64,000 nt of DNA from Paragorgia papillata (taxonomy: Eukaryota; Cnidaria; Anthozoa; Scleralcyonacea; Coralliidae): assembly GCA_035771165.1 (NCBI GenBank), contig JAWNZC010000285.1, positions 620,001 to 684,000 of the forward strand, written 5' to 3'. The notes beneath the pieces were generated by a model. That model was not told where the DNA came from and did not search any database. It was given only the letters and a program-made list of their open reading frames with translations. Position numbers and translations under genes: made by a program. Below, piece by piece: positions 10,467 to 63,790 of the stretch (the first letter of the stretch is position 1; every line of letters begins with the position of its first letter).

Positions 10467-10471
10467 ATCTT

Positions 10472-22316: not shown

Positions 22317-22718
22317 ATGTCAAACGAGAACGGTAATAATATATCGCGAATCGCTTCGTTGATTACGGTAAAAACCAAAGACGAAACGGTAATTTTTGCT
22401 TCTTCAGTAATCCGCTACGTTCAAGAAGAATTAAGTAAGGATGTTGAAGAATTAGCGGGGGCCGTGCAAGAAACCTTGAATGAAAAGCTGAGAGAGATCA
22501 ATATTTATGAAGACGTTAAAGTAGAGATATTGGGATGTTTGAAGAGTCAAATACAACGTGCTGTGGAAAAAAAGCTCGCTGAAGCTCTCGATGTTGGGTG
22601 TAGTGATCAACAAAAGAGAGATAATAAAAAAAAGAGAGATATATGCATGAATATGTGTACTTTATTGAACAGTCAACCCAATGTTTTACAAAGTTTAATG
22701 CATAATTGCAAACAATAG
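22317..22718 (+). CDS. Arm family P protein (133 aa)
   Basis: This is a small, probably helical protein with YVQEELSKDVEEL and LNEKLREI in the middle. Relatives lie at the opposite end of element 1 on the other strand (54447-54794 and 55816-56187), sharing FVQ(D/E)(H/Q)L and (L/V)NEKL(K/R)E. I do not recognise the family. Its arm position, paralogy and proximity to CArG/TATA motifs suggest an early accessory or host-interaction role, which is inference. Confidence 0.6.
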   Translation: MSNENGNNISRIASLITVKTKDETVIFASSVIRYVQEELSKDVEELAGAVQETLNEKLREINIYEDVKVEILGCLKSQIQRAVEKKLAEALDVGCSDQQKRDNKKKRDICMNMCTLLNSQPNVLQSLMHNCKQ

Positions 22719-23924: not shown

Positions 23925-24000
23925 TAGATTTTTTATTTTTTACTAAAAAAATGGGTCTATAAAATTGTTTAAAACAATAATACTATCATTGCATTTTGAG

Positions 24001-25263
24001 ATGCCAAGGAAACGGAAGCGTCATGGTTCAAAGGGTGAAAATAAGAAAAGAAAAACTAAAGAAGAAAAGGGATTGTTGTGGAAAAAAATTCTTATTAATG
24101 TACCCGAATTTCGTAAATTTCGCAGCGGTGAAATTGGTTTGTTATATTGGTTGTTTGGATTATTGGATATATTTCAAGGCGGATATATAAGACTGATTGA
24201 AAGAGAAGTCAAAGGAAGAGAAACACGGCATTCATTGTATCCTATATGGTTGTATAAAGGGGATCCTCACAGTAGCGGCGAAAAAATAGAAACAGAACTT
24301 CTTCCTTATGTGACTATAGAGAACACTTACCGTTATTTAGTACCCTATATGACTGAAAGAACTGGTCGTTGGTCGGTTAGGCACTCATGTTTTTACCCCT
24401 GTCTGATATTGGCTCACGATAATTTCTTATGTTGTTCTTTGTTCCCTCGAAACAGCAATATAGTTAAGCAATATTACTTTTCAATTTTACCTTCGTATCG
24501 TATACCGTTGCAAAGTGATAATTATCATTTAATTGGTTGTAAAAATGAAACCACAAACATATTGTATACACCGTTTGCGCGGGCGGGTAAAAGAAGATAT
24601 AATTATTTTCAATATATTCGTGAGGAATATGGTATGAGAGCTTTAACAGCTGCATTTTATTTGCATTCAATATCACCTTTTTTTTTTTACCATTGTTGTT
24701 GCCTGTTTGACGGTTTTCATAATGATTTACTTTATAATTTAATTGCGTGTTTTGTATTTTATTGTGATCGATATAATCCTAACGGGGTATTAGCACGTAA
24801 AGTTAATGCTTCTTATAATGTTCGACAAATAAGCAAACACATAATACGGTATTTGCAAGTACAAGGATGGATGGTTGGACAGGATGGTTTATTAGCGGTT
24901 GATGAGAACGTGCCGTATTATGAGGAAAATAAATGCCGATATAAAAATTGTAAACAAAATAGTTCGTTTTGTTCAAAATGTCCGTTTCGTTATAAAATGG
25001 AAAATTTAAATAGGGAAATGAGTGAGGAGGAAAAAAATGTTGAGAGAAATTTTATTTTCACGCAACCTACCAGATGTTAGGATAACTATGAGTCAGCGAC
25101 TTTTACAGCACATTATGATGATGATGAACAATGTAGTATAAATGTAATATACTGTGAGAATGATCATGATTTAATCAATTATGTAGACGCTATCTTACCT
25201 GAAATACCTGAAATTAATAATTTATCTATGTTCTCCCTAATGAATGAAAAATGTGAACATTGA
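24001..25263 (+). pseudogene. Arm family Q protein, left copy, interrupted by TAG
   Basis: Start MPRKRKRHGSKG is basic, probably a nuclear signal. The body matches the right-arm gene at 51716-52936 throughout: VPEFRKFRSGEIG, LYWLFGLLDIFQGG, MTERTGRWSVR, and the closing PEINNLSMF. A TAG at 25078-25080 ends the open frame, but the same frame continues to 25263 with clear homology to the paralogue's C-terminus. It is therefore a nonsense mutation (or, less likely, readthrough), not a natural end. Function unknown. There are Cys-rich patches near the C-terminus (CRYKNC...CSKCPF). TATAAAA lies shortly upstream at about 23958. Confidence 0.7.
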
Positions 25264-28954: not shown

Positions 28955-29158
28955 ATGGGGAATTTGTGTGGAAAAGATAAACCTTTTTTTACAATACGTT
29001 TTTCTTGTGTTAATATTCGAGATTCGGATAACGTAACTATTGACCGTGTTGACGGGGCGGTGAAAACACAAGAAGGAGAAGGAGAAAAAAATAATAAAAG
29101 ATTGTTCAATTGTTTTTTTAGAAAAAAAACAAAAAATGGCATCGAAGAATATGAATAA
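28955..29158 (+). CDS. Small protein with N-myristoylation-type start (67 aa)
   Basis: It begins MGNLCGKDK, a Gly2 with a nearby Cys as found in dually acylated membrane-tethered proteins. The remainder is polar and ends with a basic CFFRKKTKNG stretch. It overlaps the polymerase start by 23 nt in another frame. Membrane attachment is inference from the N-terminus. Confidence 0.45.
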   Translation: MGNLCGKDKPFFTIRFSCVNIRDSDNVTIDRVDGAVKTQEGEGEKNNKRLFNCFFRKKTKNGIEEYE

Positions 29159-32100
29159 AGATGAAGTAAGTGAACTTGTGAGTTTACTTGAAAAAAGGGG
29201 AAAAAAAGGAAATAAGGATGAAATAGAAAGCGATTTTCATACGGAGGCAATTGATGAATCATATAATGATAGATTAAAGTTAAAACAGAAAACATTAAAT
29301 ATTTCTATTTCAAGAAAGTCAACTGTGAATTTTATTGCGTTTATTCAATCTTTACGCATTGTATTTACTTATTTGCTTAACGTTGCTAAAGCTTCAACGA
29401 AATCTAAAGATGATTACGTTAGATTTATTTTTAGTCACGCCCCTAAAACATATTTTTCGACAGTTGTATTACCACTTAGTCAATTTAATGTTGAGTATTT
29501 GTTGAATATTTTTGAAAGAATGATGCAAAGTAACAAATCCTTACTGGCAAATGGTTGGGAAACAAATGTTGTTATACAAACGTTTCCTTCTGGTTTAAGT
29601 AAAAATAAGAAAAAAAATAAAAATCTTAAAAAGAAGCATGTTTACAGACATCTAGGTAGTGTTAATGATGATGATGGGGGTGTAAATAAAGATGCTGAAA
29701 AATACGGAAGGAAATTGCGAATTGGTGTTTTCTATGTAATATGTAAATTTTTAAATAGTCTTATAAAAAATTGTTGTTTTGTAGTTAGTTTATTAGTTGG
29801 TTTATCATATTTAAAAAAAGATAGCAAATATGTAATAATGGAGAGAACACCTCATAAACCCGTTGATAAATTATATGATATCGCTGAAATTCGTGATGTT
29901 TATCATCAGTGTAGAATTCCTGAGGGGGCGGTGAAAACAAAGAATTTTCGTGACGTTTATGAGAATTTTCTTAAAGCACAGGGTGTTGATTTGATAGTAT
30001 ACTCTGATAATTATAGTGATTGCATCATCTATGATTCTCGTACGGATAAAGATGGTAATTTAATAAAATTAACCAATAATATAGTTTGTTTATGGCTAAA
30101 TAATAATCATTACGATGTCGTTTTAGATATGCGTAAATTTTCTAAACTTAATCCATATTCATTTTGCGTTAAATGTATGAAATATTATAACGAGTTTGAA
30201 CGTAAAGATAACCATATTTGTTATAATCATTTAACCTGTCAAAGATGTTTCAGACAAACGAACTGTTTGAGAAATATTAAAATTGAATGTAGTAATTGCA
30301 ATATTTTATTTTTTAATGAAGAATGCTTTCGTAATCATTTTACAAATAGAATTTTCAAACCTATGCAGGGTAATCATGGTCTACTTACACCGTGTAATTA
30401 TTATTTCTATTGTAAGAACTGCTTAAAAATTGTACCGCGATTTATTTTTTCCCAAAAATCAAATGTGAAAAAACATCAATGTGATAAAAAGTTTTGTTTT
30501 CATTGTAGAGATTATAAAAAGAAATCACATTATTGTTATATGAAACCGTTACCTATCCCAAAAAAAGACGAATACGATAAAAAAAATTTTTTTTTTGATT
30601 TCGAAACACGAGTTGATGAAAAAAAACCCAACTTAATGATACCATTTTACTGTGTCGTTCAAAAAGTGTGTAAAAAATGTGAAAACATTGATTTTGTAAA
30701 AAATAAAAATTATTCAGAAGAACAAATCATTTTTGAATGTTGTGGTAGACGTGAAATTGTTTTTAAAGGAGATAATGTTTAAACGATCTGTGTGAATTTA
30801 TATTATTGCAAAAAAATTCTCTTTGGCTTGCACATAATGGCGAGCGTTTTGATACAATTTTTATTTTTAAATATTTTTTGGAACAAAAAAAATTTTATCC
30901 TGATACAATAATGCATGGAAACAAAGTAATGATGCTATTTATACCGGATGAAAATATTACTTTTTTTGATAGTTTTTCGTTTTTGCATATGTCGTTATCG
31001 AAGATACCGAAAACAATGGGACTTGAAAATTTATGTAAAGGATTTCATCCATATTTTTTTTACGATTTGAAATATGAGGGTGAAATTGTTGATCGTAAAT
31101 ATTTTGACGTGGAAAATATGTGTAAAGAAACGAAAATTGAATTTGAAAAATGGTATTTGGAAAAAAAGGGAAAGCAATATATATTTGAAGAGGAAATGTA
31201 TTATTATTGTAGTTCAGATGTTGACATTTTGAGAAAGGGTTGTATTAAATTTTCTTCTTTGATAAAGGAAACAGGGGGGGTAGCTCCTTTTTACGATACA
31301 TCTTGTATCACTATTGCGAGTCTTGCAATGAAAATCTTTCGTTTAAATTTCTTAAGAAAAAAATGTATAGGTATTATTCCCGCAACAGGATATAGAGGGA
31401 AAATTAATCAAAGCGTAGTTGCGTTAATTTGGTTGGAAGAGATAAACAAAGAAGTGGGTGGGGGGTTAGAATATAAATGTTCAAGAAACGGTGAAAAAAA
31501 GGTTTTAGAGCGTTATGTTGACGGCTTTTATAACAACGTTATCTATCAATTTCATGGATGTTTCTTTCATGGCTGCCCTTCTTGTTTTCATCCTTATGAA
31601 ATTAATAAAATAAACAATGAAAAATTTTGTAACCTTTATTCAACTACAAAAAAATTTACTCATGAATTGGAAAAAGCAGGATATAAAGTTATAGAAAAAT
31701 GGGAGTGCGAATTTTTAAGAGAAAATAAAATCACTAAAAGTGTTTTAGATGAGAAAAAGAAATACTTTTATGCATATACACCTTTGGATCCGAGAGAAGC
31801 ACTTTATGGCGGGAGAACTTCACCCACTTGTTTATTTAAAAATGTGAAAGAAGATGAAAACATTTTTTATGTTGATTTTACTTCTTTGTATCCCTTCGTT
31901 CAAAAAAGTGAAAAATTTCCAGTAGGTCACCCTACAATATTTATTAAAGATGAATGTGATACAATAGAAATATCTGAGGTATTTGGGTTAGTGAAATGTT
32001 GTATTTTACCTCCACGCAATATATATTTACCTGTTTTACCCGTTCGTATGAATGGAAGATTATTATTCCCATTGTGCTATACATGTGCAGTTACAACGCA

Positions 32101-33145
32101 AATAACACGTTGTAATCATAATGAAAATGAACGTTGTATATTGGGTACGTGGACAAGTGTAGAAATAAATAAAGCTATTGAAAAAGGCTATCGAATTTTG
32201 AAAACGTTTGAAATTTATCATTTTTCTCGACAAGAAAGAATTTTTCAAGATTATGTGAATTGTTTTTTGAAAATCAAACAAGAAGCATCTGGTTTTCCAC
32301 CAGAATGTTATGATGAAAATAAAAAATTGATTGACAGTGAAGTAGATAAATATATTGAAAATTATTACAAAAACGAGGGTATTCTATTGGATAAAGATAA
32401 AATTGAAAAAAACCCTGGTCTACGTCAAACTGCGAAAGATTTATTAAATTCACTTTGGGGAAAGTTTGCGCAAAATGAAAATAATACAAAAGTTGATTTT
32501 TTAACCGAATATGATGATTTGCTAAGTTTAGCTAACGATTCAAATATAAAATTAACTTCTGTCGATTTTGTTAACGGTGAATTACTGCGTGTCACCTATG
32601 TGAAAAAAGATGAGATAAACACTCCTTTGAAAACTGGAAATGTTGTTATTGCTTGTTTTGTTACAGCGTATGCACGTTTGAAATTATTCGAGTTAATCGA
32701 TAGTTTAGGAGAAAATGCTTTATATTTTGACACTGATTCTGTTTTTTATTTAAAAAAAAATGACGAAGTTGAAGTTAAAACGGGAAATTATTTAGGTGAA
32801 TTAACAAATGAATTGAAAGAGGGGGAATGGATTACTCAATTTTGTTCTACGGGCCCAAAATCTTATTCATACCGTACTAATTTAAAAGATGAAGTTGTAC
32901 ACATTAAGGGATTTTCTTTAAAAAATGAAAAAATAAAAGAAATATTAAATTTTAAATCGTTGCAGACTTGTGTTAAAGACAATACTCAGACAATCAAAAT
33001 TGTATATGAAAGAAAAATAACTAGAGATAAACTTAACCATATTTTTATAGAAAATGAAACTAAAAAATTTAATTTTACTTTTAATAAACGAGTTGTTAAA
33101 GATAATTTCTATACTATTCCGTATGGTTTTTTAGATGATGAGTAA
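29136..33145 (+). pseudogene. polB: Protein-primed DNA polymerase B, broken by one frame shift
   Basis: This is the replicative polymerase of Maverick/Polinton-type elements, which start DNA synthesis on a terminal protein. The N-terminal part has an OTU-like/Cys-rich region (NHYDVVLD, then CQRCF...CSNC) and exonuclease motif I (FDFETR, about 30595). The frame is lost at a TAA at 30780 and resumes one base earlier in phase with exo II (AHNGERFD), exo III (SSDVDIL), YGGRT (about 31805), motif A (DFTSLYP), motif B (LLNSLWGKF) and motif C (FDTDS, about 32725). All catalytic residues are present on either side. The break is one missing base next to a T run, so either decay or a sequencing error. 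It overlaps the ATPase start by 11 nt. Confidence 0.9.
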
Positions 33146-33771
33146 AATAAACAGTGCTGTAATACCACTTCAACATCCTTTTATGTTAACGTTATGCGGC
33201 CCCAGCCAATGTGGGAAAACGTTTTGGATATATAAATTGTTAAAGTTTATCGAAGTGATGGTTACACCGCAGATCAATAAAATTATTTATCTGTATACTA
33301 CACAACAACCGTTATATGGGGAGATGGAGAAAATTATTAAAGAGAAAAAAATAACTATTGAATTTATCGATTGTAATAAGGGAATTCCGTCAGCTAATGA
33401 TTTGCAAACGAATTTAAGCGATAACACTTTAGTTGTTTTAGATGATCTTATGACTGTTGCTACATCTTCAAAAGAAAATTTGGATAATTTAAATAATTTT
33501 GCATGTCGCGATGCACATCATAGAAATATGAGTGTTATTTTTACATGTCAAAATTTAATGTACGGTAATGGAAAATTACGAAATTCACGTATCAACAGTC
33601 AATATCATCTAATGTTTAAAAATATTGCAGATGTACGAAATATGCATACTATTTCTGATAATAGAAAAGTAAAAAGAAATGTATCACGGTGGTCAAATAT
33701 GCAGAAATTTCTCCCACTTGTGCGGGCTCGTTATTCACAGCGGTATACCGTGTTTTTTATAAATTCTGCCG
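33135..33771 (+). pseudogene. A32/FtsK-like genome packaging ATPase, 5' part
   Basis: The protein shows Walker A GPSQCGKT (residues 22-29), Walker B LVVLDD (99-104) and a TCQN sensor, as in the packaging ATPases of Polintons, adintoviruses and larger eukaryotic DNA viruses. It would pump genome into capsids. The coding sequence runs into the nested transposon after residue 212. The C-terminal part is found at 40655-40828, 6.9 kb away, in a phase that does not match, so the gene is inactive. Confidence 0.85.
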
Positions 33772-33777
33772 GCAGCA

Positions 33778-34506
33778 ATGGCGGCCGGCCCATCCAGGAG
33801 TGAGGAGGACGAACTGGATTTGAAATCAACTGTTAATGATACAGAGAGAGGAAAGAAATTTTGGAATTCATCGGTTGTAGCGTTGAAATTTCAAGTTGAA
33901 GGTGAATGGCTAAGGAAGGTGCGAGACGCGAAAAGAAAACCGGATTTTGGTATGGGAAACTTGGATGGTTTGCTTGAGGAGGTGATAGGCAATAAAATCG
34001 AGTTAGCTGGGCCATTAATCGACTTCTACCTCAAACAGATCGGTGAAGGTTTTCGAAACAAACTCTGTCGATCCAAAGCTACTGGTTTGGTGAATCCCCT
34101 TGTTATTTCGGTGCCATGGTCTATTTACCGGCACATACTTATTCTTGTCAGAGGATATTCTGGCGATATACAGAGCAAGGAAAAGGGCAATAACATTAAA
34201 CACTATGCCACAATCTCAACGTTGGACACCGCATCTAAACTGTTTTCACCAGCTCGATTCAGTGGAGAAAGTGTTCTTGCGTACAGGCATTTTAAAAGGG
34301 TACCATCGAAGACACCAGGGGAGAGAATGCTGTCTGTTTACAATGGCAGATCCATAGTAGCCGTGACAGGTACAACCCCACTCTGTATGGATTACTGCAC
34401 ACAAAAGGAAGTTGTCACAATTTCCTTTTATGTGCAGCGTTATACTAAAGATGATTTTGTCATAGATAGCAGTTTACAGGCACTTATGAATCAGGATTCT
34501 TCATGA
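33778..34506 (+). CDS. Unrecognised transposon-borne protein (242 aa)
   Basis: Start MAAGPSRSEEDEL lies only 6 bp inside the proposed transposon tip, so either transcription starts outside the element or an internal Met is used (for example MGNLDGLLEE). The sequence contains FWNSSVVALKFQVEGEWL, GLVNPLVISVPWSIYRHIL and CTQKEVVTISFYVQRY. There is no signal peptide or known domain. It converges on the 916-aa gene. Confidence 0.6.
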   Translation: MAAGPSRSEEDELDLKSTVNDTERGKKFWNSSVVALKFQVEGEWLRKVRDAKRKPDFGMGNLDGLLEEVIGNKIELAGPLIDFYLKQIGEGFRNKLCRSKATGLVNPLVISVPWSIYRHILILVRGYSGDIQSKEKGNNIKHYATISTLDTASKLFSPARFSGESVLAYRHFKRVPSKTPGERMLSVYNGRSIVAVTGTTPLCMDYCTQKEVVTISFYVQRYTKDDFVIDSSLQALMNQDSS

Positions 34507-36580: not shown

Positions 36581-36722
36581 GAAAGTGAGACCCACTGGGG
36601 GCCAATGGTGAAATAAATCTACCACAATAGTTTAGTTTACATATACAATGTACATGTATCTACATGTACTTGCACAAAATTGTTGCAAAACAACAAGAGA
36701 ACATGAAATGAAAGATAGAACC

Positions 36723-39700: not shown

Positions 39701-40186
39701 TTAAATTACAATCAAGATAACTTATAAACTCTGTCGATTCTAATTGTTAGCTTTACTTACCAGAGTCATCCCTCAATTTATCAATTTCGGCTTCCCTTAA
39801 TGAAAGTTGTTGTTCACGCTCTTCAACATCGCCTATTCGAGCCAGCTTTGCTTCATACTCATTAATCGTCTTCTCAGATTCCTCATTAAACTCTCTCTTA
39901 AGAGAGTGCTTCACATGAGGAACTGAATGCAACCAAAATGAGCGACATTTTCTTTTGGAATTACATTTCCCTTGATGCCCATCATCTTTGGAACACCGCC
40001 GATTCTTCTTGCAAAGATTTTCGTCCCTAGAATAATATAAGATCAATCAAGCCCTCGTTTAGTTCAAAGCAAACAACAGCGAATTAAAGATGGCGGAAGT
40101 CTTCAAAAATTACATTCAAAACATAGGTTTAAAAGCAATTTTCCTTACGTTTTCTCGACATCGTCAGCATCGCTTCTGGAAGCCAT
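36723..40186 (-). CDS. Transposon-borne 916-aa protein with C2H2 finger and SAP domain (three exons)
   Basis: Exon 1 is 40149-40186 (ATG, MASRSDADDVEK). Exon 2 is 39761-40026, after a CTAG acceptor and ending at a GTAAGT donor. Exon 3 is 36723-39169, after a CTGTTAG acceptor. The phases join without a stop and total 916 codons. Exon 2 carries a Cys motif (CKKNRRC...GKCNSKRKC). A coiled coil spans the exon 2/3 junction. The middle contains FSDDGAPETSELG and VEFQPSADQSWQ, which I associate with repetitive coral and sponge proteins. The C-terminus has CECGRDKDCEGSECSFC, a C2H2 finger (CSTCAERF...HVKSIH) and a SAP DNA-binding domain (LSIKQLREELKKRGL). It is probably the element's transposase or DNA-binding subunit. 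The catalytic residues are not identified. Confidence 0.7.
39199..39380. repeat. Hairpins inside the second intron
   Basis: ATCCTATTC CCCG AATAGGAT near 39211 forms a tight stem. A larger fold-back follows at 39265-39380, with GTTTATATGGCATACTTGCC against GGCAAGTAACCCG...ATATAAAC. This is a MITE-like insertion in the intron (39170-39760). Confidence 0.5.
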
Positions 40187-43348: not shown

Positions 43349-44662
43349 TTATATATCGTACAATAAACGTGCCGGTGTTTTTATACCCACTTTTATTTCA
43401 TTACGAAATTCACCAACAAAAAGCATTGTACCTGCAACAGTATTTGCTGAAAATTCAATATGTGCATTAACCACCCCACTTGGACGATTAGGTAAAACTT
43501 TTAGATGTGTATCATGATTTGAAGTTAAATCAAATGCAATGATTGCATATCCGTTTATAAAATCTTGATAAGTAATTGGCATTTCGGAATGTTTTCTGTT
43601 AAGAACATCTCTTAATTGTTGGTACGCTTCAACTTGATTTTTCAATGTAGACACAGTTACATTGTTTACAGAAACGGTAAAACTTGAATAACTTTCCCAG
43701 TTAAAATTAAACACGTTTGTTCCAAATGTTCCGTTAAAATTATTTTGCCGAGAATATAAACAAAATAAACGAACAGGACAACTCCCATTAAAAATATCAT
43801 TTTCAATAATTGATCTTCTTCCCGCAGGAATAGTTGATGTAACTGTACGAAATGTAGTTGTATAGTATTTGGCTTCTTGTTGATTTTTAACAAATGATGT
43901 ATTCAGTGCATTAGTTAATTGATCTTTTGGTTTAAAAATAGGGATTTTCATTTTTAAATTTTCTAATGAAATTTTCGCATCTGCTACAGCTAAATCACCG
44001 TGATTGGCACCCATACATATTAAATTATTATTTGCTCTTGTTAATCTTATTTCAGTTTTAAAAGCCGTCGGAAGAAATATTTCACCACCACCATCACTAA
44101 AATACGCGAGATCAATTTGATCTATAAGCGTAGCAGTTGTATTGAGTGTAAGCAGACGTCGGGCTGTTCCACCCACATTATTACCCGCAACAGTGTTCAT
44201 TTCACCATGGGTATCAAGATAAGCACCATTCACTTCTTTTGAATCCTCGTACATTGACGGTGTTTCACGTGTAAGAAAATTAATATACGCTCCATAAAAA
44301 CTAAAATTACCAGCAGGTGTCACTAAATTGTCATTTAACTTTAATTCTGTTGTTTTCCAAAACGTACGTAACGGTAGAGGAGGTAGGATAATATTTGCAT
44401 TCGCTCCCCCTAGGGTATTATCAGCTTTTCTAATAGAAATATCAGCCATTAATTTTGCATCACTTGTTTTCATTAATCCTACACTATTTCCATGTCTTGT
44501 AAGTGTATATACGTCTGAATATGGGTCTTTTGGAATGGGGAAAATTTCATCTGTTCTTGTTTCCAAAAAAATATCATTAAAAGGTGCTGAAGTAAAAAAT
44601 TGTAGCGGACTACTAAACAATGTATCATGTTGATCGATCTCTTTTTCTACTGGATCATCCAT
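43349..44662 (-). CDS. Major capsid protein, double jelly-roll (437 aa)
   Basis: The sequence fits the Polinton/adintovirus hexon-like family that also appears in animal databases as F54H12.2-like proteins. It has an N-terminal SPLQFFTSAPFNDIF, then PPLPLRTFWKTTELKLND, NFSFYGAYINFLT, a region rich in beta-strand patterns, and a C-terminal HIEFSANTVAGTMLFVGEF. It forms the trimeric capsomers of the icosahedral shell. The frame is intact from start to stop, unlike the enzymes of this element. It is first in a minus-strand run of virion genes after the core-like protein at 44703. Confidence 0.75.
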   Translation of the reverse strand: MDDPVEKEIDQHDTLFSSPLQFFTSAPFNDIFLETRTDEIFPIPKDPYSDVYTLTRHGNSVGLMKTSDAKLMADISIRKADNTLGGANANIILPPLPLRTFWKTTELKLNDNLVTPAGNFSFYGAYINFLTRETPSMYEDSKEVNGAYLDTHGEMNTVAGNNVGGTARRLLTLNTTATLIDQIDLAYFSDGGGEIFLPTAFKTEIRLTRANNNLICMGANHGDLAVADAKISLENLKMKIPIFKPKDQLTNALNTSFVKNQQEAKYYTTTFRTVTSTIPAGRRSIIENDIFNGSCPVRLFCLYSRQNNFNGTFGTNVFNFNWESYSSFTVSVNNVTVSTLKNQVEAYQQLRDVLNRKHSEMPITYQDFINGYAIIAFDLTSNHDTHLKVLPNRPSGVVNAHIEFSANTVAGTMLFVGEFRNEIKVGIKTPARLLYDI

Positions 44663-45814: not shown

Positions 45815-46742
45815 AATGAATTATTCCTTCAATATTAACAGTTCCTGAATCAAAGGGAATCAATGTACCTTCACTATCTTTTAATGTTATATGTAACGAA
45901 GAAATTTTTGTTTTTTTAAATTTCCTTTTAACTGAAACTGAGGGTGAATAAACAATTAATTCTCCGTTTCCTTTCCCTTGTTCAGACCAGCGAATCGGTA
46001 CAGTTGTTAATATCTCCGATGATGTATCACCCACCAAACCCCTTTCCAATTCTTCGCAATAAATAAATATTTTATCCACCCCGTCCGAAATATCGGGTAA
46101 ATAATCAGCAAAAATCGACTGAGTTGTCGATGATACTTCTTCTTGATCGACGGTTTGCTTAAAATTGATTGTTTCTTTGCTAAATCCTAACATAAACGCC
46201 AATTTCGTTGAAATATTCAATGCAATATCGATTAAAAATTTTTTTCTTTCATTTTCTACCGATGAAGACGATAAATGAAACTCACTTAAATTACCACCAT
46301 CATGTGCTTTTCCAGTTGACGAATGAAATTGATTTAACCAATATTCAGCATATATATTTGCACTAATTTTTATTTTCCCGTTATTGTCAAATGTAAAAAA
46401 AATATCATATTCATTTAATGCGTTATTTAAATAATTTATTAGTCTTTCTAAAGTGTAAATTCCCTCCGGGATGATAAATTTTCCACTTTCTATATATAGA
46501 TTAGTGTCTTCATATATGCCTTTATCATTTTTTTTAAACCATTGATATTGTAATTGAAGAGTAAACCAACATTTATCACCAGTTACATTTTTTGTTGTCG
46601 CAGGATAGGTAATAGTTGATACTTCAAAAAATGCTTCACGATTTAACGCATCGATCGGTTGAATTAATTTCATTTCAAAATTGTTTGTGTAATTAATCCT
46701 TCCTTCTTTTACGGTATTACTTAAAATGTGTAAATGCGTCAT
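45807..46742 (-). CDS. Minor capsid (penton-type) protein (311 aa)
   Basis: The pattern is that of Polinton pentons: an N-terminal strand with NFEMKLIQPIDA followed by FFEVSTITYPATTKNV, IPEGIYTLERLINYLN, NGKIKIS, KLAFMLGF, and DKIFIYCEELERGLVGD before a second jelly-roll half. Pentons occupy the five-fold vertices. The frame is intact and overlaps the integrase stop by 4 nt. Confidence 0.75.
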   Translation of the reverse strand: MTHLHILSNTVKEGRINYTNNFEMKLIQPIDALNREAFFEVSTITYPATTKNVTGDKCWFTLQLQYQWFKKNDKGIYEDTNLYIESGKFIIPEGIYTLERLINYLNNALNEYDIFFTFDNNGKIKISANIYAEYWLNQFHSSTGKAHDGGNLSEFHLSSSSVENERKKFLIDIALNISTKLAFMLGFSKETINFKQTVDQEEVSSTTQSIFADYLPDISDGVDKIFIYCEELERGLVGDTSSEILTTVPIRWSEQGKGNGELIVYSPSVSVKRKFKKTKISSLHITLKDSEGTLIPFDSGTVNIEGIIHYA

Positions 46743-47631
46743 ATTTTCTGTAATTCCTCTCGGTAAAATATACCTTCTATCTTTTCGTTATTTAAATCTT
46801 CTAATTCGTATGTTACAGGATCCGTAATTAACACTTTTTTTATTTTAAAATTTTCATTTGTCCATCGACGTAAACTACTTTTTTCAAAAATATTTGTTTT
46901 TGTACGCGCAATACGTACAAGAGTTCCTTCCTTTAACAACTCCTTAGTAAAAATAATAGGCGAAATCATTTTACATAACATTACATTCTTCAATTTATTC
47001 ATTTTTTTTTTCCCGCGATAAATATCATGAGGTGAAACCCCCCCCAAACTCTTATGGGGTGATTTATTATATCTATCGATAATAATAGGGAAATAAGAAA
47101 AATAATCAAAACTTCCCGTCAATGTTAAAACACGGCGTGTCATTGTTTTCAAAGTTTGAATTACTCTTTCAACATGAGATGCTTTAATCTCTCGGTTATA
47201 GGTGTGAAAAACGGAAAATCCATATTTTTTACTCAATTCTTTACGAATTATTTGAAATTCAGTTCCTTCATCACATTGAATCTTTTCAGGCGAATCTTCC
47301 TTTTTTTAAATCTTCTCGAATTTATTTGCAGTATTTCTTGCAGTTTTTTTTTTAACAGTTCAACCTATACATATCTTGAATAAACATCAATACACACAAG
47401 CCAATAACGATATTGATTATTATAACGTGATAAATCTTTATTTTCAGCTAAATCAATTTCCCATTGTTGATTTTTTTCATTTACGTGTATATTTAAGCGT
47501 CTATATTTCTTTCTATTAAGTTTATGTTGTCTATATTTTGATAATTCTTCTTCATTTAATGTTTCTCCCTTCAGTAATCTTGCAGCTTTTTCGATAAATT
47601 CTGGAGAAAATTTCAGTTTTTTTTTACTCAT
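46739..47631 (-). pseudogene. Retroviral-type (rve) integrase, broken
   Basis: This integrase inserts Maverick/Polinton DNA by DDE chemistry. The N-terminal part (47365-47631) has a zinc-finger-like lead and QWEIDLAE with the first Asp, then CIDVYSRYV. A TAG (47365-47367) follows in frame. The next 130 bp contain an A-run frame change and a TAA near 47310. The C-terminal frame resumes with CDEGTEF (second Asp) and ASHVERVIQTLK (Glu), then a chromodomain-like end. All three catalytic acids are recognisable, but at least three lesions separate them. Confidence 0.85.
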
Positions 47632-50304: not shown

Positions 50305-50321
50305 AAAACAAAAAATGTGTG

Positions 50322-50747
50322 ATGGATATCATTGTTGAAGAACTCAAAAAACATGGTATCGATAAGGGAGAAAATATTCTGGAAAATGCAATCGAAAAAT
50401 GTATTTTAATAAATAAACAGCTTCTACATACAACAAAAGATTGTATTGTTAACAGCAATTTAAAGTTAGAGACAATTTACCGTGGTATGGGACGGAATGA
50501 AATTGGTCAAATTATTATATTTTATTCTCTCATCGAAATTTATTACCAAGAAAAAAGGGATAAAGAAGAAGATATAATCAAACATTTAACAAGATTAACA
50601 GTAGACGATTTCAAACGCTCGACAAAACAACATATCTTTTTTCCATTTTATCAAAAGCAAAAAAAAGACAAAGCGTTAAGTACAATATTTATAGGGTCTT
50701 TATCATTGGGTTTTATCGCTGGAGCTATTACGTTTTTATTACAGTAA
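50322..50747 (+). CDS. Tail-anchored protein, possibly Bcl-2-like (141 aa)
   Basis: Start MDIIVEELKKHGI. The body looks all-helical. The C-terminus is a membrane anchor (STIFIGSLSLGFIAGAITFLL), as in tail-anchored proteins. YRGMGRNEIGQIIIFYSL might correspond to a BH1 region (a G-R followed by a hydrophobic helix), and length and anchor match viral Bcl-2 proteins. Sequence support is weak, so this is only a hypothesis. It lies 18 nt after the spliced gene. Confidence 0.4.
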   Translation: MDIIVEELKKHGIDKGENILENAIEKCILINKQLLHTTKDCIVNSNLKLETIYRGMGRNEIGQIIIFYSLIEIYYQEKRDKEEDIIKHLTRLTVDDFKRSTKQHIFFPFYQKQKKDKALSTIFIGSLSLGFIAGAITFLLQ

Positions 50748-50752
50748 AAAGA

Positions 50753-50929
50753 ATGAATAAGAAAGAGTTGGAATTCCATTTAAAACTCAAAATATTCTCA
50801 TATGACATTATACGAATGGAAGAGAATGAAGAAGATTTGGATTTTTGGTATTCTTGTGGTAGATTTGTTCAAGCGTTAAATGACTTTTTTTGTAAAGTAA
50901 AAGAAAGAGAAAAAAATGGTAATAAGTGA
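50753..50929 (+). CDS. Small protein overlapping the Fic gene (58 aa)
   Basis: It begins MNKKELEFHLKLKIF 6 nt after the previous stop and overlaps the Fic start by 14 nt. The protein is helical and charged, with EEDLDFWYSCGRFVQ. Its position matches that of separately encoded Fic inhibitors, but I do not see the (S/T)xxxE(G/N) inhibitory motif. Confidence 0.4.
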   Translation: MNKKELEFHLKLKIFSYDIIRMEENEEDLDFWYSCGRFVQALNDFFCKVKEREKNGNK

Positions 50930-51332
50930 AATATGTATTTTCCTTCACAAACGTTGTATGAAGAATGGAGGTGAATATTCAAAATCGAGAAGAATTGTTG
51001 GAAATCATTACCCTCCAGATCCAGACTTCATTGAAGAATATATGAAATTATTAAACAAACAATATCGTAGTTTTACTCCTTACACTAAATCACTAGCTAC
51101 ACGAATGTATTTTTCTCTTGAATATATTCATCCGTTTTCAGATGGTAATGGGCGGGTAGGAAAAGCTTTATTCGCAATATTGAACAACAATTTATTTTGT
51201 AAAGTTAAAACACACAAACAGCATGAAGAATTATGTAAAGAACTAGAAAGATTAGAACGTGATGTTTACGTTTTCAAAGATAGAGAATGTAAAATTCATA
51301 AATTTAATAAATTGCAAAATATTTTACAATAA
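50916..51332 (+). CDS. Fic-domain protein (138 aa)
   Basis: Fic enzymes transfer AMP (or related groups) from nucleotides to Ser, Thr or Tyr of target proteins. The catalytic loop is HPFSDGNGR (residues 72-80) with the catalytic His72. Lys83 stands where the last Arg of HxFx(D/E)GNGRxxR is usual. A flap-like YSKSRRIVGNHYPPDP (21-36) precedes it. The protein is little more than the core domain, with no inhibitory helix seen. Neighbours are accessory genes of the right arm, so a role in modifying host proteins is plausible (inference). Transfer from a cellular or bacterial source is possible. Confidence 0.85.
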   Translation: MVISEICIFLHKRCMKNGGEYSKSRRIVGNHYPPDPDFIEEYMKLLNKQYRSFTPYTKSLATRMYFSLEYIHPFSDGNGRVGKALFAILNNNLFCKVKTHKQHEELCKELERLERDVYVFKDRECKIHKFNKLQNILQ

Positions 51333-51715: not shown

Positions 51716-52936
51716 TTAACAACAACATTTTTCATTCATTGGGTAAAATATAGATAAATTATTAATTTCCGGCACTTCAGGTAATACAAAATTTACATAA
51801 TCTTCTAATTCACTTTCAATATTCTCACAACAATATACACATATTTGACAAGACTCGTATTGCGTTTTAAAATCTATAACGGGTGGATCAGAGATGCGGA
51901 AAGTGGGTAACGATAAAATAAAATTTCTCTCAACATTTTTTTCCTCCTCACTCATTTTTCTATTTAAATTTTCCATTTTATAACATATCGGTTCGATATA
52001 GGATGTACATTCGTTCATACAATTTTTATAGCGGCATTTAATTTGCGTTTTATAAATATCATCATCTATTTTCAAATATCGTTCTATGTATTTATTTATT
52101 CGTTCAATATTATAGTTAGCGCTGGATTGTCGTGCTAATACTCCGTCAGGATTATGTTGTTTACAAAAAAAAATAAAACATGCAATTAGATTATAAACCA
52201 TTTCAAAATCAACTTCTTGGTTAGAAATAGAGATACAGTTGAAGAAAAAATAAGGTGATACAGAATACAAAAAAAAAATTGCTGTTAAAGCTCTCTCACC
52301 ATATTGCGTACGAATATGAGAAAATAATTCATATTTTCTTGTCGCACCACCGTACGCGAATGGCGTATTCATTGAATTTGTATTTTCATTTTTACAACCC
52401 GTTAAATGATAATTATCTCTTTGCGTAACTGTATGATAATTAGGTAAAAGCTCAAAATAATATTCCTTAACTACATCAGGGTTTTGAGGGAAAAGCGAAC
52501 AACATATGGAACTATCGCGGACCAATATCAAATCTCTTAAACAAGAAGATAGTCTCACTGCCCAACGACCGGTTCTTTCAGACATATTAGGTATTAAATA
52601 TCGTTTTAGATTGTTGTCTATAGTGACATAAGGTAAGAGTTCTTTGTCTTCTTTGTTTTCATCACCAGGTGTTCCTCTATACAACCATAAAGGATAGAGG
52701 TGTCGAGTACATCCGAGTTGCAGGATGTCTTCTCTTTCAATCAATCTTATAAAACCACCTTGATATATATCCAATAGACCAAATAACCAATATAATATAC
52801 CAATTTCACGATTACGAAATTCACGAAATTCAGGAACAATAATAAGAATCGTTTTCAAAATACATTCTTCGTCGTCGTCATGTTTTATTCTTTTAGTATT
52901 TTCACGTCCCAATTCTGATTTGGCGCGTTTACTCAT
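51716..52936 (-). CDS. Arm family Q protein, right copy (406 aa)
   Basis: This is the full-length partner of the left-arm gene at 24001-25263, on the opposite strand. Shared blocks include VPEFREFRNREIG, LYWLFGLLDIYQGG, MSERTGRWAVR, EKNVERNFI and PEINNLSIF. The N-terminus is basic (SKRAKSELGRENTKRIK), probably nuclear. The C-terminus has Cys pairs (CQICVYCC, KCCC). The gene overlaps the upstream gene by 4 nt (ATGA). I do not know the family. Its presence at both arms suggests an important early function. Confidence 0.7.
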   Translation of the reverse strand: MSKRAKSELGRENTKRIKHDDDEECILKTILIIVPEFREFRNREIGILYWLFGLLDIYQGGFIRLIEREDILQLGCTRHLYPLWLYRGTPGDENKEDKELLPYVTIDNNLKRYLIPNMSERTGRWAVRLSSCLRDLILVRDSSICCSLFPQNPDVVKEYYFELLPNYHTVTQRDNYHLTGCKNENTNSMNTPFAYGGATRKYELFSHIRTQYGERALTAIFFLYSVSPYFFFNCISISNQEVDFEMVYNLIACFIFFCKQHNPDGVLARQSSANYNIERINKYIERYLKIDDDIYKTQIKCRYKNCMNECTSYIEPICYKMENLNRKMSEEEKNVERNFILSLPTFRISDPPVIDFKTQYESCQICVYCCENIESELEDYVNFVLPEVPEINNLSIFYPMNEKCCC

Positions 52937-55815: not shown

Positions 55816-56187
55816 TTACTCCTTATTTGTCTCTACTGCTTCTCTCTTTCGTTTCATTGATTGTTCAACAAACTTCGTAAGATCCTCTGAATGTTCAATA
55901 TATCGTACAAGTTTTACTTTTGCAAGCTTCCCACCCACAACAGTTTTTATCTGTCGTTTCATCCAGAACTTTATTATCGATTTAAGCTCTAATTCGACAT
56001 CATCATTAAGATTAACTTCCACCAACTTTTCCTTCAAGATTTTCTGTATATGGCTTGCTATTTCTTCAACATCACTGTCTAATTGTTCTTGAACAAATTT
56101 ATGTGTCGCTTTAACATCAATTACTTGAACATCCGTAACTTTTGTCGAAATTAATGAATCGATTCTCGATATATTCTCCTCTAACAT
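55816..56187 (-). CDS. Arm family P protein, right copy 2 (123 aa)
   Basis: It begins MLEENISRIDSLISTK, close to the ENGNNISRIASLITVK start of the left-arm gene at 22317. It shares FVQEQLDSDVEEIA and LKEKLVEV with it. It ends in a basic helix. Together with 54447 it mirrors the two left-arm genes in inverted orientation. Confidence 0.65.
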   Translation of the reverse strand: MLEENISRIDSLISTKVTDVQVIDVKATHKFVQEQLDSDVEEIASHIQKILKEKLVEVNLNDDVELELKSIIKFWMKRQIKTVVGGKLAKVKLVRYIEHSEDLTKFVEQSMKRKREAVETNKE

Positions 56188-59788: not shown

Positions 59789-60988
59789 ATGAGTTATTAC
59801 TATGGATATGATGATCCAGATTTTCCAAGTTATGGAAAGGATGGAGACACTGGGGAAACAGGTCCACAGGGGCCCCAAGGAGACACTGGCGTAACAGGAC
59901 CCCAAGGACCCAAAGGAGATAAAGGAAACACTGGGACAACAGGAGCAGCTGGTTTAGCAGGACCACAGGGGTCCAAAGGAGACACTGGCAACACAGGAGC
60001 AGCTGGTTCCAAAGGAGACAAAGGAGACCATGGTATTAGAGGAGCTCAAGGATCCAAAGGAGACAGGGGAGACAGGGGTTTAGCAGGTTCCACAGGATCT
60101 GGCGGCCCCAAAGGAGATAAAGGAGACCATGGAACCATGGGAACAAAAGGATCCAAAGGAGACAAAGGAGACAAAGGAGACAAGGGTATGGCAGGTGCAA
60201 CAGCCCAAAAAGGAGACAAAGGAGACCATGGTGATGATGGAGCAAAAGGAAACAAAGGAGACACTGGGGCAACAGGTCCACAAGGATCCAAAGGAGACAA
60301 AGGAGACAAAGGAGACACTGGTAACACAGGTTCCCAAGGACCCCAAGGATCCCAAGGATCCCAAGGACCCCAAGGAACCAAAGGAGACAAAGGAGACAAA
60401 GGGGACAGGGGTTTAACAGGTCCCCAAGGATTACCAGGACCAAAAGGAACAACTGGACAAAGAGGTATCAGAGGCTTAAGAGGAGTTACTGGAGCCACAG
60501 GACAAGCTGGAAATTTTACACAGGTGGTAAAGTATAGAAAAGGTAGTGGAAAAACAAGCTATAAAGCAGGTAGTTGGGATAACACAAATAACAACAGCAC
60601 TTTGCTATCATTTACCGCAACAGAATCTGGAAAATTTTTAATAAAATACTGGTTTACACTAGAACCAGATGGACATAAAATAGATCAACAATCTAAACAA
60701 ACTGGTTGGTGGGCTTCTTCATATAGAGCATATTTTGACCTTAAAACAGATCTTTACCATGGAGATGTTAATATAAGATCAAACAAACTTGCGGATTTGG
60801 AAACCCTAACCATGGGTAAAACATATTACGAAACAAAACCCCACCATATATTTTGCGAAGCCATTGCAACCATAATAAAGGGAACCAAAGTATCTTTACA
60901 TTGTTATTCTGGTTCGGTTGGAGATGACTATACCTTTTTGTTTTTTGATGTGCGGGATGTTGAAATTAACCTGCTTAAGATTAATTAA
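59789..60988 (+). CDS. Collagen-like fibre with C-terminal globular head (399 aa)
   Basis: After [16 protein letters not shown] comes a Gly-X-Y region (about residues 17-245) rich in GDKGDKG and GPQG, with one break at GATAQKGDK. The C-terminal 150 residues look like a C1q/TNF-type jelly-roll head ([32 protein letters not shown]). It would form a triple-helical stalk with a trimeric head. It lies 6 nt after the lectin fibre gene. Antisense frames in this gene are only echoes of the Gly repeat. Confidence 0.75.
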
Positions 60989-60993
60989 AATAA

Positions 60994-61206
60994 ATGGACT
61001 CCAAAGAATTTTCAAAAGTTTTAACCAAATGTCAACATGAACACAAATGTGTTTTGGTTAAGGCTGTTCTTAAAACAGCAACAGACAACTCCACAGAAGA
61101 AATATATTACAACACAAACCATAAAAATATCTGTAATTATTTACATCCCAATGAAGACCCAATAAAAATGCTAACACGGATAGGTGTATATGATACTGTT
61201 TTTTAA
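60994..61206 (+). CDS. Unrecognised small protein (70 aa)
   Basis: It starts MDSKEFSKVLTKCQHEHKC 5 nt after the collagen-like gene. It has His and Cys near the N-terminus and a C-terminal LTRIGVYDTVF. No family was recognised. Its place in the fibre block suggests a virion or assembly factor (inference). Confidence 0.5.
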   Translation: MDSKEFSKVLTKCQHEHKCVLVKAVLKTATDNSTEEIYYNTNHKNICNYLHPNEDPIKMLTRIGVYDTVF

Positions 61207-61275
61207 ACTAGTTGTTGAACTAGTTGTTGAACAAATCTAAACTAGTTGCTGAACAAATTTAAACTAGTTGTTAAA
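61203..61275. repeat. Tandem AACTAGTTG(T/C)TGAACAAAT
   Basis: Four imperfect copies of a 15-22 bp unit lie between two genes and run into the start of the next one. Confidence 0.75.
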
Positions 61276-61278
61276 TAA

Positions 61279-61659
61279 ATGGAAGCAGAACAAAGTAATG
61301 CAAAACCGAACGAAGTGAAACAAAGTGAAAAAAGTGAAGAAAAACAAACTATTACAAAAACCCCTCCACCTGTCCGCACCAAAAATCCAAAAAGAGTTGC
61401 CCAAGGAAAAAAACTGGCTGCAATAAGCAAGGCCGCAAAACTAAAGAAAAAACAACAGTTGGAAACAATCCCAGAAGAAGCCGAAAAAATGTCTCCAACA
61501 TCTTTAATAACATTTACTGGAACAATACTTGGAACTTGTTGTACACTTCTACTAACCTATATTGCATACAGTAATTGGGGAAAAAAGGACCCGAACTGCA
61601 AGGAAGAGATTCCTAGGGTAAAAACAGTTTACAAAGACCTTTCCCAATATGATCTTTGA
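61279..61659 (+). CDS. Single-pass membrane protein (126 aa)
   Basis: A polar, Lys-rich N-terminal part (residues 1-70) precedes one hydrophobic segment of about 23 residues (75-97, containing TILGTCCTLLLTYIAY) and a short C-terminal tail. It could sit in an internal membrane or act in membrane penetration. No family was recognised. Confidence 0.55.
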   Translation: MEAEQSNAKPNEVKQSEKSEEKQTITKTPPPVRTKNPKRVAQGKKLAAISKAAKLKKKQQLETIPEEAEKMSPTSLITFTGTILGTCCTLLLTYIAYSNWGKKDPNCKEEIPRVKTVYKDLSQYDL

Positions 61660-61673
61660 GTCAAAAGAAATTT

Positions 61674-61691
61674 CTATCCTGTTATGGATAG
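61674..61691. terminator. Intergenic hairpin CTATCC-tgttat-GGATAG
   Basis: A six-bp perfect stem between genes resembles the hairpin at 58920 in position and sequence style (CTAT(T/C)C arm). Its function is unproven. Confidence 0.3.
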
Positions 61692-61704
61692 GATTTAATA
61701 AAAT

Positions 61705-61896
61705 ATGATCGCACACAGTTATGCAACAGAATGTGTTTTTAGAAGCCAAACCTGGTTTAACATCGGAAAACTTATACACCTTATTTCAGAAGGGGGCTAT
61801 GATGGATACAAACTTTGGTTGTTATATAGTAAATATGATCTTAAAAACTATAATGAAAACCATTGTTATCATATTTGGGGAAATTTTGAACCCTAA
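61705..61896 (+). CDS. Unrecognised small protein (63 aa)
   Basis: The start MIAHSYATECVF is preferred because it follows AATAAAAT, the same leader type as neighbouring genes. An overlapping frame starting at 61721 is also open for 63 codons. The chosen one is rich in Trp, Tyr and His (YKLWLLYSKYDL). Confidence in the frame is modest. Confidence 0.35.
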   Translation: MIAHSYATECVFRSQTWFNIGKLIHLISEGGYDGYKLWLLYSKYDLKNYNENHCYHIWGNFEP

Positions 61897-61923
61897 ACAA
61901 AATTTTTTTTAACACTATAATAA

Positions 61924-63135
61924 ATGAATACAGAAAGAGAAGTTGAACTAATTCCTGGTTATAACCGTTTACACAAAAGTACAATAACCGGAGAACGAGC
62001 CCGAAATGTAATTACTTTCAACCCTAATTCGGCTAATGAAGGAGAAGTAATTTACATTCATATTCCAAAACTTAAACCTGGAGCAACCTTAGTTCCTGAC
62101 AAGATGTTTCTTCTGTTTGACTTTAAGAACAAGAATACCAAATCTTGGTTTAATAACAATCTTGCAAAACAACTACAAGAACGACTGGAAGTCAGGTTTG
62201 CAGGCGAAAAAGTTTACGACAACACAGGAGAAAGCCTTCTGGAAACATATAAGGACTTGTGGATAGACAAACACGAGAGATCCAATATGATCGAAGATGG
62301 TATTGCCACAGAAAACCAAAGAAAACTTATTTCAAAATCTGATGATGCCTCTTCCGACTCATATGCAGCTGTTTATGGAACAAAACAACGAATCCAGTTG
62401 GGTAAAATTTTAAAGGACCACGGATTGTATGCCCCCCACAGCATGGCAAATGACTTACAATATATTATTACATTGCCAAAAGCCACCAATATTATGAAAG
62501 CCCAAAGTAGCCAATCTGTGGCTGGTTACTCACTTGAAAATATCGAACTTGAGTACGAAACCATTACAAACTTTTCCCTAGTTCAGGAAATAGAATCTTC
62601 CTACCAAGTGGGTCGAGCCCTTTCGTTCGAACATGTAACTTTAATGAAAACCTCACCATGGGCAAGAGCAACAACTCTAATTAACGAAACCATTAATTTA
62701 CCAAGAAAGAGTATGAAGGCTGTTGTAATGTTGTTTACAAAAGCTTCCAGAGATGGATCAGAAGAGTTTGTTTACCCAAACATTGAGAATGTAAAAATTA
62801 CTATTGAAGGAGTTCCAAACAGTATTTACTCCCAAGGAATTCCAAAACGGAGGTTGTTTGAAGAGGCTGAACGACTTTTCAGACAAACAAATTATCCCAC
62901 CATCCAAGCTGAGGAGTTCTTCACAGAAGAGAAATTCGCGCTTGTTGTAGATCTTCGTTCGATCAATGACAACGATGTGTATGGAGATGGTACCAGGCTT
63001 TTAACAACCCAGTCCGGAATCATGTTGGAAATTACAAAGAAGGCAACATCAGCTGACCTTAAATGCCATGTTTTCATTCTTTCGGATGGACTCCTAAAAG
63101 TCCAAGGAGGAGCATTCCAGAGTGTAAATTACTAA
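61924..63135 (+). CDS. Candidate major capsid protein of element 2 (403 aa)
   Basis: The sequence belongs to a family I have met as unannotated proteins in invertebrate genomes. Blocks include NPNSANEGEVIYIHIPKLKP, FLLFDFKNKNTKSWF, RLEVRFAGEKVYDNTGESL, KDLWIDKHERSN and YYQ-like VQEIESSYQVGRAL. Length, beta-rich pattern and position directly before the packaging ATPase suggest a double jelly-roll capsid protein, unlike that of element 1 in sequence. The frame is intact. Structure prediction would be decisive. Confidence 0.55.
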   Translation: MNTEREVELIPGYNRLHKSTITGERARNVITFNPNSANEGEVIYIHIPKLKPGATLVPDKMFLLFDFKNKNTKSWFNNNLAKQLQERLEVRFAGEKVYDNTGESLLETYKDLWIDKHERSNMIEDGIATENQRKLISKSDDASSDSYAAVYGTKQRIQLGKILKDHGLYAPHSMANDLQYIITLPKATNIMKAQSSQSVAGYSLENIELEYETITNFSLVQEIESSYQVGRALSFEHVTLMKTSPWARATTLINETINLPRKSMKAVVMLFTKASRDGSEEFVYPNIENVKITIEGVPNSIYSQGIPKRRLFEEAERLFRQTNYPTIQAEEFFTEEKFALVVDLRSINDNDVYGDGTRLLTTQSGIMLEITKKATSADLKCHVFILSDGLLKVQGGAFQSVNY

Positions 63136-63142
63136 AATAAAA

Positions 63143-63790
63143 ATGGAACCAGTGAGACCATTTAATATGATTATTGTTGGAATGACAAGCTGTGGGAAAA
63201 CCCACTATTTGCTAAAAATGTTAGAAGAAATTCCCAAAAAATTTGAAAATATATTTTTAATTTGTCCTACTTTTGAATGGAACAAAACATATCTTGAATG
63301 GGAACACCTTAATGACCCAAGATTTTTTGTTATTCCTTGCGACCAAGACGAGTCCGAAGATTTTTTAAAATATGTTGTGGACTACTGTAAAGGAAGACCT
63401 TCGTTAATTATTTTGGATGACTGTGCTTCAGGACAGACTGTTAAAAACAGGACTAGTGAGTTAGTTAAACTTGGTTTTGGCGCCCGACATATGGATATTA
63501 GTACAATAGTTGTTACCCAACAACTAACAAGTATTGCGAAACCATATCGGGAAAATATTTCCAAACTGGTTACATTTTACAACCCAAACAGAAAAGACAT
63601 GCAGGTTATTTTAGATGATTACCTGGACATACCAAAAGAAGAAGAAAAAAAAATTAAAGAGATGTTGAGATCCCGGGAATATTCAAGACTAGAAATTAAC
63701 CTGGTTTACCCATACCATTACCAAATTATTTCTGGGGACCAAACAAATTTTGGGGATACAATAAATGAGGAACCTAAGAATCTTGCTTAA
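63143..63790 (+). CDS. A32/FtsK-like packaging ATPase of element 2 (215 aa)
   Basis: Walker A is GMTSCGKT (residues 13-20), Walker B is LIILDD (88-93) and the sensor is VVTQQ. The overall size is that of viral packaging ATPases. It differs strongly from the ATPase of element 1 apart from the motifs, so the two elements are separate lineages and not duplicates. The next gene starts inside its last codons. Confidence 0.85.
   Translation: MEPVRPFNMIIVGMTSCGKTHYLLKMLEEIPKKFENIFLICPTFEWNKTYLEWEHLNDPRFFVIPCDQDESEDFLKYVVDYCKGRPSLIILDDCASGQTVKNRTSELVKLGFGARHMDISTIVVTQQLTSIAKPYRENISKLVTFYNPNRKDMQVILDDYLDIPKEEEKKIKEMLRSREYSRLEINLVYPYHYQIISGDQTNFGDTINEEPKNLA

What the first reader, a model, noticed from the sequence alone, without database searches (positions are those of the whole stretch)
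50916..51332. Fic-domain enzyme in a Polinton-type virus
HPFSDGNGR is an unambiguous Fic loop with the catalytic His. Fic proteins are common in bacteria and rare in animal DNA viruses. The domain is minimal, with no visible inhibitory helix, and Lys replaces the usual last Arg. It may modify host signalling or innate defence proteins.
Basis: partly seen in the sequence, partly recalled or inferred. Interest (0 to 1): 0.75.

Follow-up and report, generated by a model that had tools for sequence, protein, structure and literature searches.

The report
Viral Fic enzyme, gene copy split
A decaying virus-like element in this genome carries a gene for a Fic protein, an enzyme type that usually tags other proteins with AMP; it belongs to a distinct branch with an altered active site, although this particular copy is broken into two pieces.

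Summary
The Fic loop is real: ORF 50916-51332(+) matches Pfam Fic (E 1.1e-13). It lies in a Polinton-type element with PolB and an A32-type ATPase, between inverted paralogous end genes.

The "minimal domain without inhibitory helix" is not a property of the gene. Intact relatives are about 186 aa. Their first ~50 residues match a separate, out-of-frame upstream ORF, 50753-50929 (E 2.3e-15), so the window copy is split.

Of 47 relatives listed, 41 plus the window were put in a tree and form one clade (100/100). All 43 rows holding the motif have Lys at the second signature Arg; 73 of 73 other listed Fic proteins have Arg. A confident model of an intact relative shows the Fic fold and flap. Its N-terminal helix probably holds a conserved Glu where class II Fic proteins hold the inhibitory one, without the S/T...G motif.

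Two capsid-type and two Fic relatives share exact contig lengths, so linkage to the virus recurs. Fic in arthropod DNA viruses has precedent. Best reading: a self-restrained nucleotidyl transferase acting on host proteins, target unknown. New variant of a known kind.

The parts
50916..51332 (+). ORF with the Fic domain (138 aa), C-terminal three quarters of the gene
   Evidence: Pfam PF02661 E 1.1e-13; family profile 143 bits
51129..51164 (+). Fic signature HPFSDGNGRVGK; Lys at the second Arg position
   Evidence: translation; 43 of 43 family rows with the motif have Lys there, 73 of 73 other listed Fic proteins Arg
50753..50929 (+). ORF (58 aa) matching the N-terminus of the full-length relatives, in another frame, overlapping the Fic ORF by 14 nt
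   Evidence: N-terminal family profile 53.0 bits, E 2.3e-15; no Pfam match of its own
50807..50824 (+). segment IIRMEE: candidate (diverged) inhibitory-helix site with conserved M and E
   Evidence: 32 of 48 rows hold such a segment, none with the canonical motif there; I18, M20 invariant and E21, E22 at least 90% in A4; aligned with the SIEG-type segment of other Fic proteins by MAFFT
29136..33145 (+). type B DNA polymerase region, in two ORFs of different frames (29136-30782 and 30806-33145)
   Evidence: PF03175 E 3.9e-56 on 30806-33145; no Pfam match on 29136-30782, so its being the N-terminal part is inferred
33135..33803 (+). A32-type packaging ATPase
   Evidence: PF04665 E 1.4e-7
43349..44662 (-). 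major-capsid-type protein (437 aa), the marker used for linkage; capsid role inferred from size, position and conservation
   Evidence: 20 homologs, two on contigs of the same length as Fic homologs; no Pfam or PDB match
46739..47631 (-). integrase-type region in two ORFs of different frames (47365-47631 and 46739-47236)
   Evidence: rve E 0.014, below its cutoff, on 47365-47631; the second ORF had no Pfam match
23965..25080 (+). left end gene, paralogue of 51716-52936
   Evidence: blastp 52% over 363 aa, E 1.2e-123
51716..52936 (-). right end gene, inverted paralogue of 23965-25080, outward of the Fic gene
   Evidence: blastp 52% over 363 aa; DNA 69% over 1257 columns
22317..22718 (+). outer left end gene, paralogue of 55816-56187
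   Evidence: blastp 46% over 85 aa, E 2e-17
55816..56187 (-). outer right end gene, inverted paralogue of 22317-22718
   Evidence: blastp 46% over 85 aa, E 2e-17

Best explanation
The ORF is part of an accessory gene of a Polinton-type (adintovirus-like) virus lineage of animals, here apparently endogenous and decaying. The intact gene encodes a compact Fic protein of about 186 aa: an N-terminal helix in the inhibitory-helix position, an acidic linker, and a complete Fic core with flap and HPFSDGNGRVxK loop. Shown: family, fold of an intact relative by prediction, Lys as family trait, split reading frame in this copy. Inferred: when intact it transfers a nucleotide (most likely AMP from ATP) to hydroxyl groups of a host protein in the cytosol or nucleus; the signature His acts as base, Lys stands in for the second Arg at the gamma-phosphate, and the N-terminal Glu holds the enzyme off or tunes it until released. 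Its use would be to alter a host signalling, chaperone or cytoskeletal protein during infection. In the window copy the 138-aa ORF alone lacks the first core helix and is probably not a working enzyme.
Against: No activity is shown. The second Arg, which salt-bridges the gamma-phosphate in competent structures (PMC3667792 passages), is Lys throughout, so ATP use may differ. The canonical (S/T)xxx(E/D)(G/N) motif is absent at the site in 32 of 32 rows that hold the segment, while 72 of 73 other Fic rows have such a motif before the loop. The profile-profile alignment does not reach the N-terminus. The C. difficile Fic range (start 11) does not put Glu21 on its E35 if ungapped; only four structures with a known Glu were checked this way. 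Some relatives have lost signature residues (R to C or H in 3 of 43, G to A or R in 2, F to L in 2), as decaying copies would. Target and localisation are untested. Only the window's DNA was at hand, so no selection test on nucleotides was possible. The capsid and integrase identities are not confirmed by family matches.
Confidence: 0.6

Rival explanations
1. Eraser or non-AMP chemistry: because the Glu is kept and the second Arg is Lys, the enzyme mainly removes AMP from proteins or uses another nucleotide-containing donor, countering a host modification.
For: Lys in 43 of 43 motif rows against Arg in 73 of 73 other listed Fic proteins and in 26 of 28 distinct motif occurrences in IMG/VR loci, the other two being Leu and Ala; Glu conserved.
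Against: Lys can also bind a gamma-phosphate; I compared no residue pattern of known non-AMP Fic proteins; no data on activity.
Confidence: 0.2
2. Dead relic: the protein has no present function in this genome, and the family is only a remnant of an old capture.
For: Window copy split into two frames; PolB and integrase regions also lie in two ORFs; some relatives lack signature residues or are fragments.
Against: 25 of 47 relatives are 178-195 aa long, and rows with the motif keep His and Lys. The statement fits the window copy but not the family.
Confidence: 0.15
3. Two-part arrangement: in this sub-branch the N-terminal helix is made as a separate overlapping small protein that masks the Fic part, like the antitoxin of class I Fic systems.
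For: The two ORFs overlap by 14 nt with an ATG at the start of the second. By eye, P0003 and P0039 start, and P0094 ends, near the same junction.
Against: The Fic part alone lacks the first core helix, which small Fic proteins keep (VbhT and NmFic align from model residue 22-31 on). Other regions of the element are split too, which favours decay or sequencing error. The relatives' DNA could not be seen.
Confidence: 0.05

Closest known systems
FICD/HYPE and C. elegans FIC-1 (animal class II Fic)
   Same: Fic core, flap, HPFxDGNGR loop, N-terminal helix at the inhibitory position; FICD is the best solved match by sequence and by VIA fold comparison
   Different: No room for TPR repeats or a membrane anchor in 186 aa (FICD layout recalled); Lys for the second Arg; not placed next to the one FICD fragment in the tree; S/T and G of the inhibitory motif replaced
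Prokaryotic class II Fic such as SoFic and HTH-Fic proteins of Patescibacteria
   Same: Nearest sequence relatives outside the family in the length-limited search (up to 58 bits); same core order
   Different: They have Arg (73 of 73), a canonical inhibitory-type motif (72 of 73) and, in the rows displayed, a longer linker after it
Oryctes rhinoceros nudivirus FIC-like protein (B7SV90) and white spot syndrome virus Wsv406 (Q77J09)
   Same: Fic-like folds in DNA viruses of arthropods (E 2.1e-3 and 4.1e-4)
   Different: Different virus groups; weak fold matches (TM by query 0.56 and 0.48); their sequences were not fetched, so relatedness beyond the fold is untested

Membership tests
Fic/Doc superfamily (PF02661) | Pfam Fic score above gathering cutoff | tested here: met
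   52.3 bits against 24; three relatives 38.7-48.8
Fic/Doc superfamily (PF02661) | Fic helical core with flap hairpin | tested here: met
AMP-transferring Fic proteins, strict signature HxFx(D/E)GNGRxxR | complete signature including second Arg | tested here: not met
   Lys in 43 of 43 motif rows incl. the window; the other signature positions are met in the window
AMP-transferring Fic proteins, strict signature HxFx(D/E)GNGRxxR | AMP transfer to protein hydroxyls | not testable with these tools
   needs an assay
Class II Fic (N-terminal inhibitory helix) | N-terminal helix in the inhibitory position | tested here: inconclusive
   helix 3-21 predicted and range starts agree for FICD, SoFic and Fic-1 but not C. 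difficile Fic if ungapped; profile alignment does not cover it
Class II Fic (N-terminal inhibitory helix) | (S/T)xxx(E/D)(G/N) motif | tested here: not met
   0 of 32 rows that hold the segment; three of 48 rows have stray matches elsewhere
FICD orthologues | grouping with FICD | tested here: inconclusive
   family of 42 rows is one clade 100/100 and the FICD fragment falls among the comparison rows, but it is one fragment on a long branch and columns are few
Polinton/Maverick, adintovirus-like | viral type B DNA polymerase | tested here: met
   PF03175 E 3.9e-56
Polinton/Maverick, adintovirus-like | A32-type packaging ATPase | tested here: met
   PF04665 31.7 bits, cutoff 22.8
Polinton/Maverick, adintovirus-like | retroviral-type integrase | tested here: inconclusive
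   rve E 0.014 on one of two pieces, below cutoff
Polinton/Maverick, adintovirus-like | double jelly-roll capsid protein | tested here: inconclusive
   437-aa candidate without Pfam or PDB sequence match; not folded
Polinton/Maverick, adintovirus-like | terminal inverted repeats | tested here: inconclusive
   inverted paralogous genes at both ends; exact repeat termini not found

The most novel reading that the evidence does not exclude
A lineage of animal Polinton-type viruses has evolved its own regulated Fic enzyme class: the second signature Arg fixed as Lys, the inhibitory helix rebuilt as an (I/V)(I/V)xMEE acidic segment joined directly to the core. Its chemistry or switching (donor choice, AMP removal, or release by charge) differs from the characterised Fic classes and is aimed at a host protein.
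Probability: 0.25. Interest if true: 0.75.

Novelty: new variant of a known kind. Interest (0 to 1): 0.52.

Why it matters
It would extend Fic enzymes, known mainly as bacterial effectors and toxins and as an animal chaperone regulator, to Polinton-type animal viruses as a recurring accessory gene. It offers a natural test of what the second signature Arg and the inhibitory-helix motif do, since a whole clade has replaced both. It also gives a marker for finding these viruses and a candidate virus-host interaction enzyme.

Tried and rejected
A bacterial gene or contamination was rejected: 41 relatives and the window form their own clade, and two relatives share contig lengths with capsid-type relatives. 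Orthology to host FICD is not supported by the tree, but one FICD fragment cannot exclude it. A canonical inhibitory motif was sought and not found at the expected place.

Viral contig scans with the window ORF (2 loci), A1 (31 loci) and A4 (30 loci) gave loci at no more than 43% identity over best segments of 40 or more residues, and none of the 28 distinct motif occurrences in them ends in Lys, so I count none as a member. The capsid, ATPase, end-gene, 61924-63135 and capsid-profile scans confirmed no relative. The neighbour 50319-50747 looked tail-anchored: no solved-structure match at E 5. Four proteins scanned against NCBIfam reached no curated cutoff. PHROGs gave five matches to the Fic ORF, all of unknown function.

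Literature: in the held library no paper has adintovirus with Fic, Polinton with 'Fic domain', Polinton with Fic, or nudivirus with Fic. Searches were broader; their listings showed nothing on a viral Fic that I recognised, but I read titles, counts and abstract starts only, and several listings were capped (25 of 616, 5 of 9,510). Most subscription papers are not held; a DOI that I recalled for the adintovirus description was not held. Papers seen: passages of PMC4854385, PMC3667792 and PMC4454073; the rest as search listings.

Full report
What is there. ORF 50916-51332(+) encodes 138 aa with HPFSDGNGRVGK at 51129-51164. Pfam names it Fic at 52.3 bits, cutoff 24. The closest solved relatives by sequence are FICD chains (E 1.2e-8; 1.8e-9 with the family profile). 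The observation of a Fic loop is sound.

The gene is longer than the ORF. A database search found 27 relatives at 43-54% local identity; 20 of the 27 are 178-195 aa long. A profile of 24 of them plus the window found 1782 matches among the 7999 candidates scored, 120 of them listed. I take 47 of the 120 listed (P0001-P0046, P0094) as the family: scores run from 329 down to 79 bits, then other Fic proteins begin at 58; the fragment P0094 (49 bits, below that gap) was added by eye for its N-terminal match. The remaining 73 listed are the comparison set; those whose listed name gives an organism are from bacteria, one from an archaeon, and most are unnamed. The search admits only proteins of 0.55-1.75 times the query's length, so full-length FICD could not appear there. 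Full-length relatives carry an N-terminal part, roughly NVKNKIFAYNVIRMEEEEEEEEFWYHCGRLVKAIRLYH. A profile of this part, run against 1909 six-frame pieces of the window, hits one piece: the upstream frame holding ORF 50753-50929 (53.0 bits, E 2.3e-15); the full profile hits that piece and the Fic ORF and nothing else at E 0.1. The two pieces lie in different frames and overlap by 14 nt. The window gene is therefore split, whether by decay or by a sequencing error. Intact copies exist among the relatives. The PolB region also lies in two ORFs of different frames (29136-30782 and 30806-33145), and so does the integrase region (47365-47631 and 46739-47236), with a Pfam match for only one piece of each, and that of the integrase below cutoff. 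That favours a decaying endogenous element.

Where it lies. PolB (PF03175, E 3.9e-56) and an A32-type ATPase (PF04665) mark a Polinton-type element. Two pairs of inverted paralogous genes bracket it: 23965-25080(+) with 51716-52936(-), 52% over 363 aa, and 22317-22718(+) with 55816-56187(-), 46% over 85 aa. The Fic gene sits just inside the right-hand pair, so it belongs to the element. The capsid-type ORF 43349-44662(-) has 20 homologs. The contigs of two of these have lengths 94724 and 31500, exactly those listed for Fic relatives P0038 and P0034; 47 Fic, 20 capsid and 73 other lengths were compared, and neither viral list shares a length with the third. Length identity is a fingerprint, not a reading of the contigs, but it indicates that Fic and capsid genes travel together in two other records. 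The other 18 capsid homologs gave no such match; 16 of them are listed on contigs under 10 kb. The capsid protein itself has no Pfam or PDB sequence match, so its identity rests on size, place and conservation.

Active site. Of 48 rows (47 relatives and the window), 43 contain the signature; the other five are fragments without that region. The search pattern fixed S, D, N and the second G and limited some others; the free positions count. His is 43 of 43 (Tyr was allowed), the last position is Lys in 43 of 43, the first Arg is 40 of 43 (C twice, H once). The 73 comparison proteins all have Arg at the last position. In 49 IMG/VR loci, many of them overlapping, 28 distinct motif occurrences have Arg 26, Leu 1, Ala 1; one locus had none. 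In Fic structures with competent ATP, the second Arg binds the gamma-phosphate (PMC3667792, passages).

Origin. In a tree of 116 rows (42 family incl. the window, 73 comparison, one FICD fragment; 129 columns, few for the purpose; bootstrap not fully settled) the family is one clade with 100/100 on a long stem; the FICD fragment, itself on a long branch, falls among the comparison rows. P0042-P0046 and P0094 were left out beforehand as fragments; no other row was dropped. I infer an old, separate capture of unknown source; neither recent transfer from the host's FICD nor from a sampled prokaryote is supported.

Function. Best supported: a self-restrained Fic transferase used against a host protein (0.6 for the whole statement). 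The viral fold library shows precedents in arthropod DNA viruses, Oryctes rhinoceros nudivirus FIC-like protein and WSSV Wsv406, both weak fold matches, so a Fic gene in such viruses is not without parallel. I found no paper joining Fic with Polintons, adintoviruses or nudiviruses in the held library. Not shown: activity, donor, target, location. The host species is unknown to me; the genome search did not complete (eight calls, listed in Tried and rejected).

Noticed in passing
59789-63790 (+): A second virus-like gene block: collagen-repeat protein 59789-60988 (PF01391), a 403-aa ORF 61924-63135 without a Pfam match above cutoff, and another, different A32-type ATPase 63143-63790 (PF04665, 62 bits). 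It may be a second element cut by the window edge.
   Followed up: partly
34000-40000, ORF 36723-39200 (-): A stretch of higher GC (0.37-0.39 against 0.27-0.31 around it) inside the element with an 825-aa ORF ending in a SAP domain; perhaps an insertion into the element.
   Followed up: no
50319-50747 (+): ORF of 142 aa just upstream of the Fic gene with a hydrophobic C-terminal stretch like a tail anchor; no solved-structure match.
   Followed up: partly
27882-28487 (-): ORF with a weak SET-domain match (E 0.0019, below cutoff) in the element.
   Followed up: no
7228-12585 (+): QRICH1 domain (7228-7830) and Phage_integrase match (12049-12585), perhaps a Crypton-like element (recalled), beside reverse transcriptase ORFs 4656-5705 and 13399-15246.
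   Followed up: no
50753-51332 and relatives P0003, P0039, P0094: The break between the N-terminal and core parts seems to recur near the same place in relatives; shared decay, sequencing error or a real two-part arrangement cannot be told without their DNA.
   Followed up: partly
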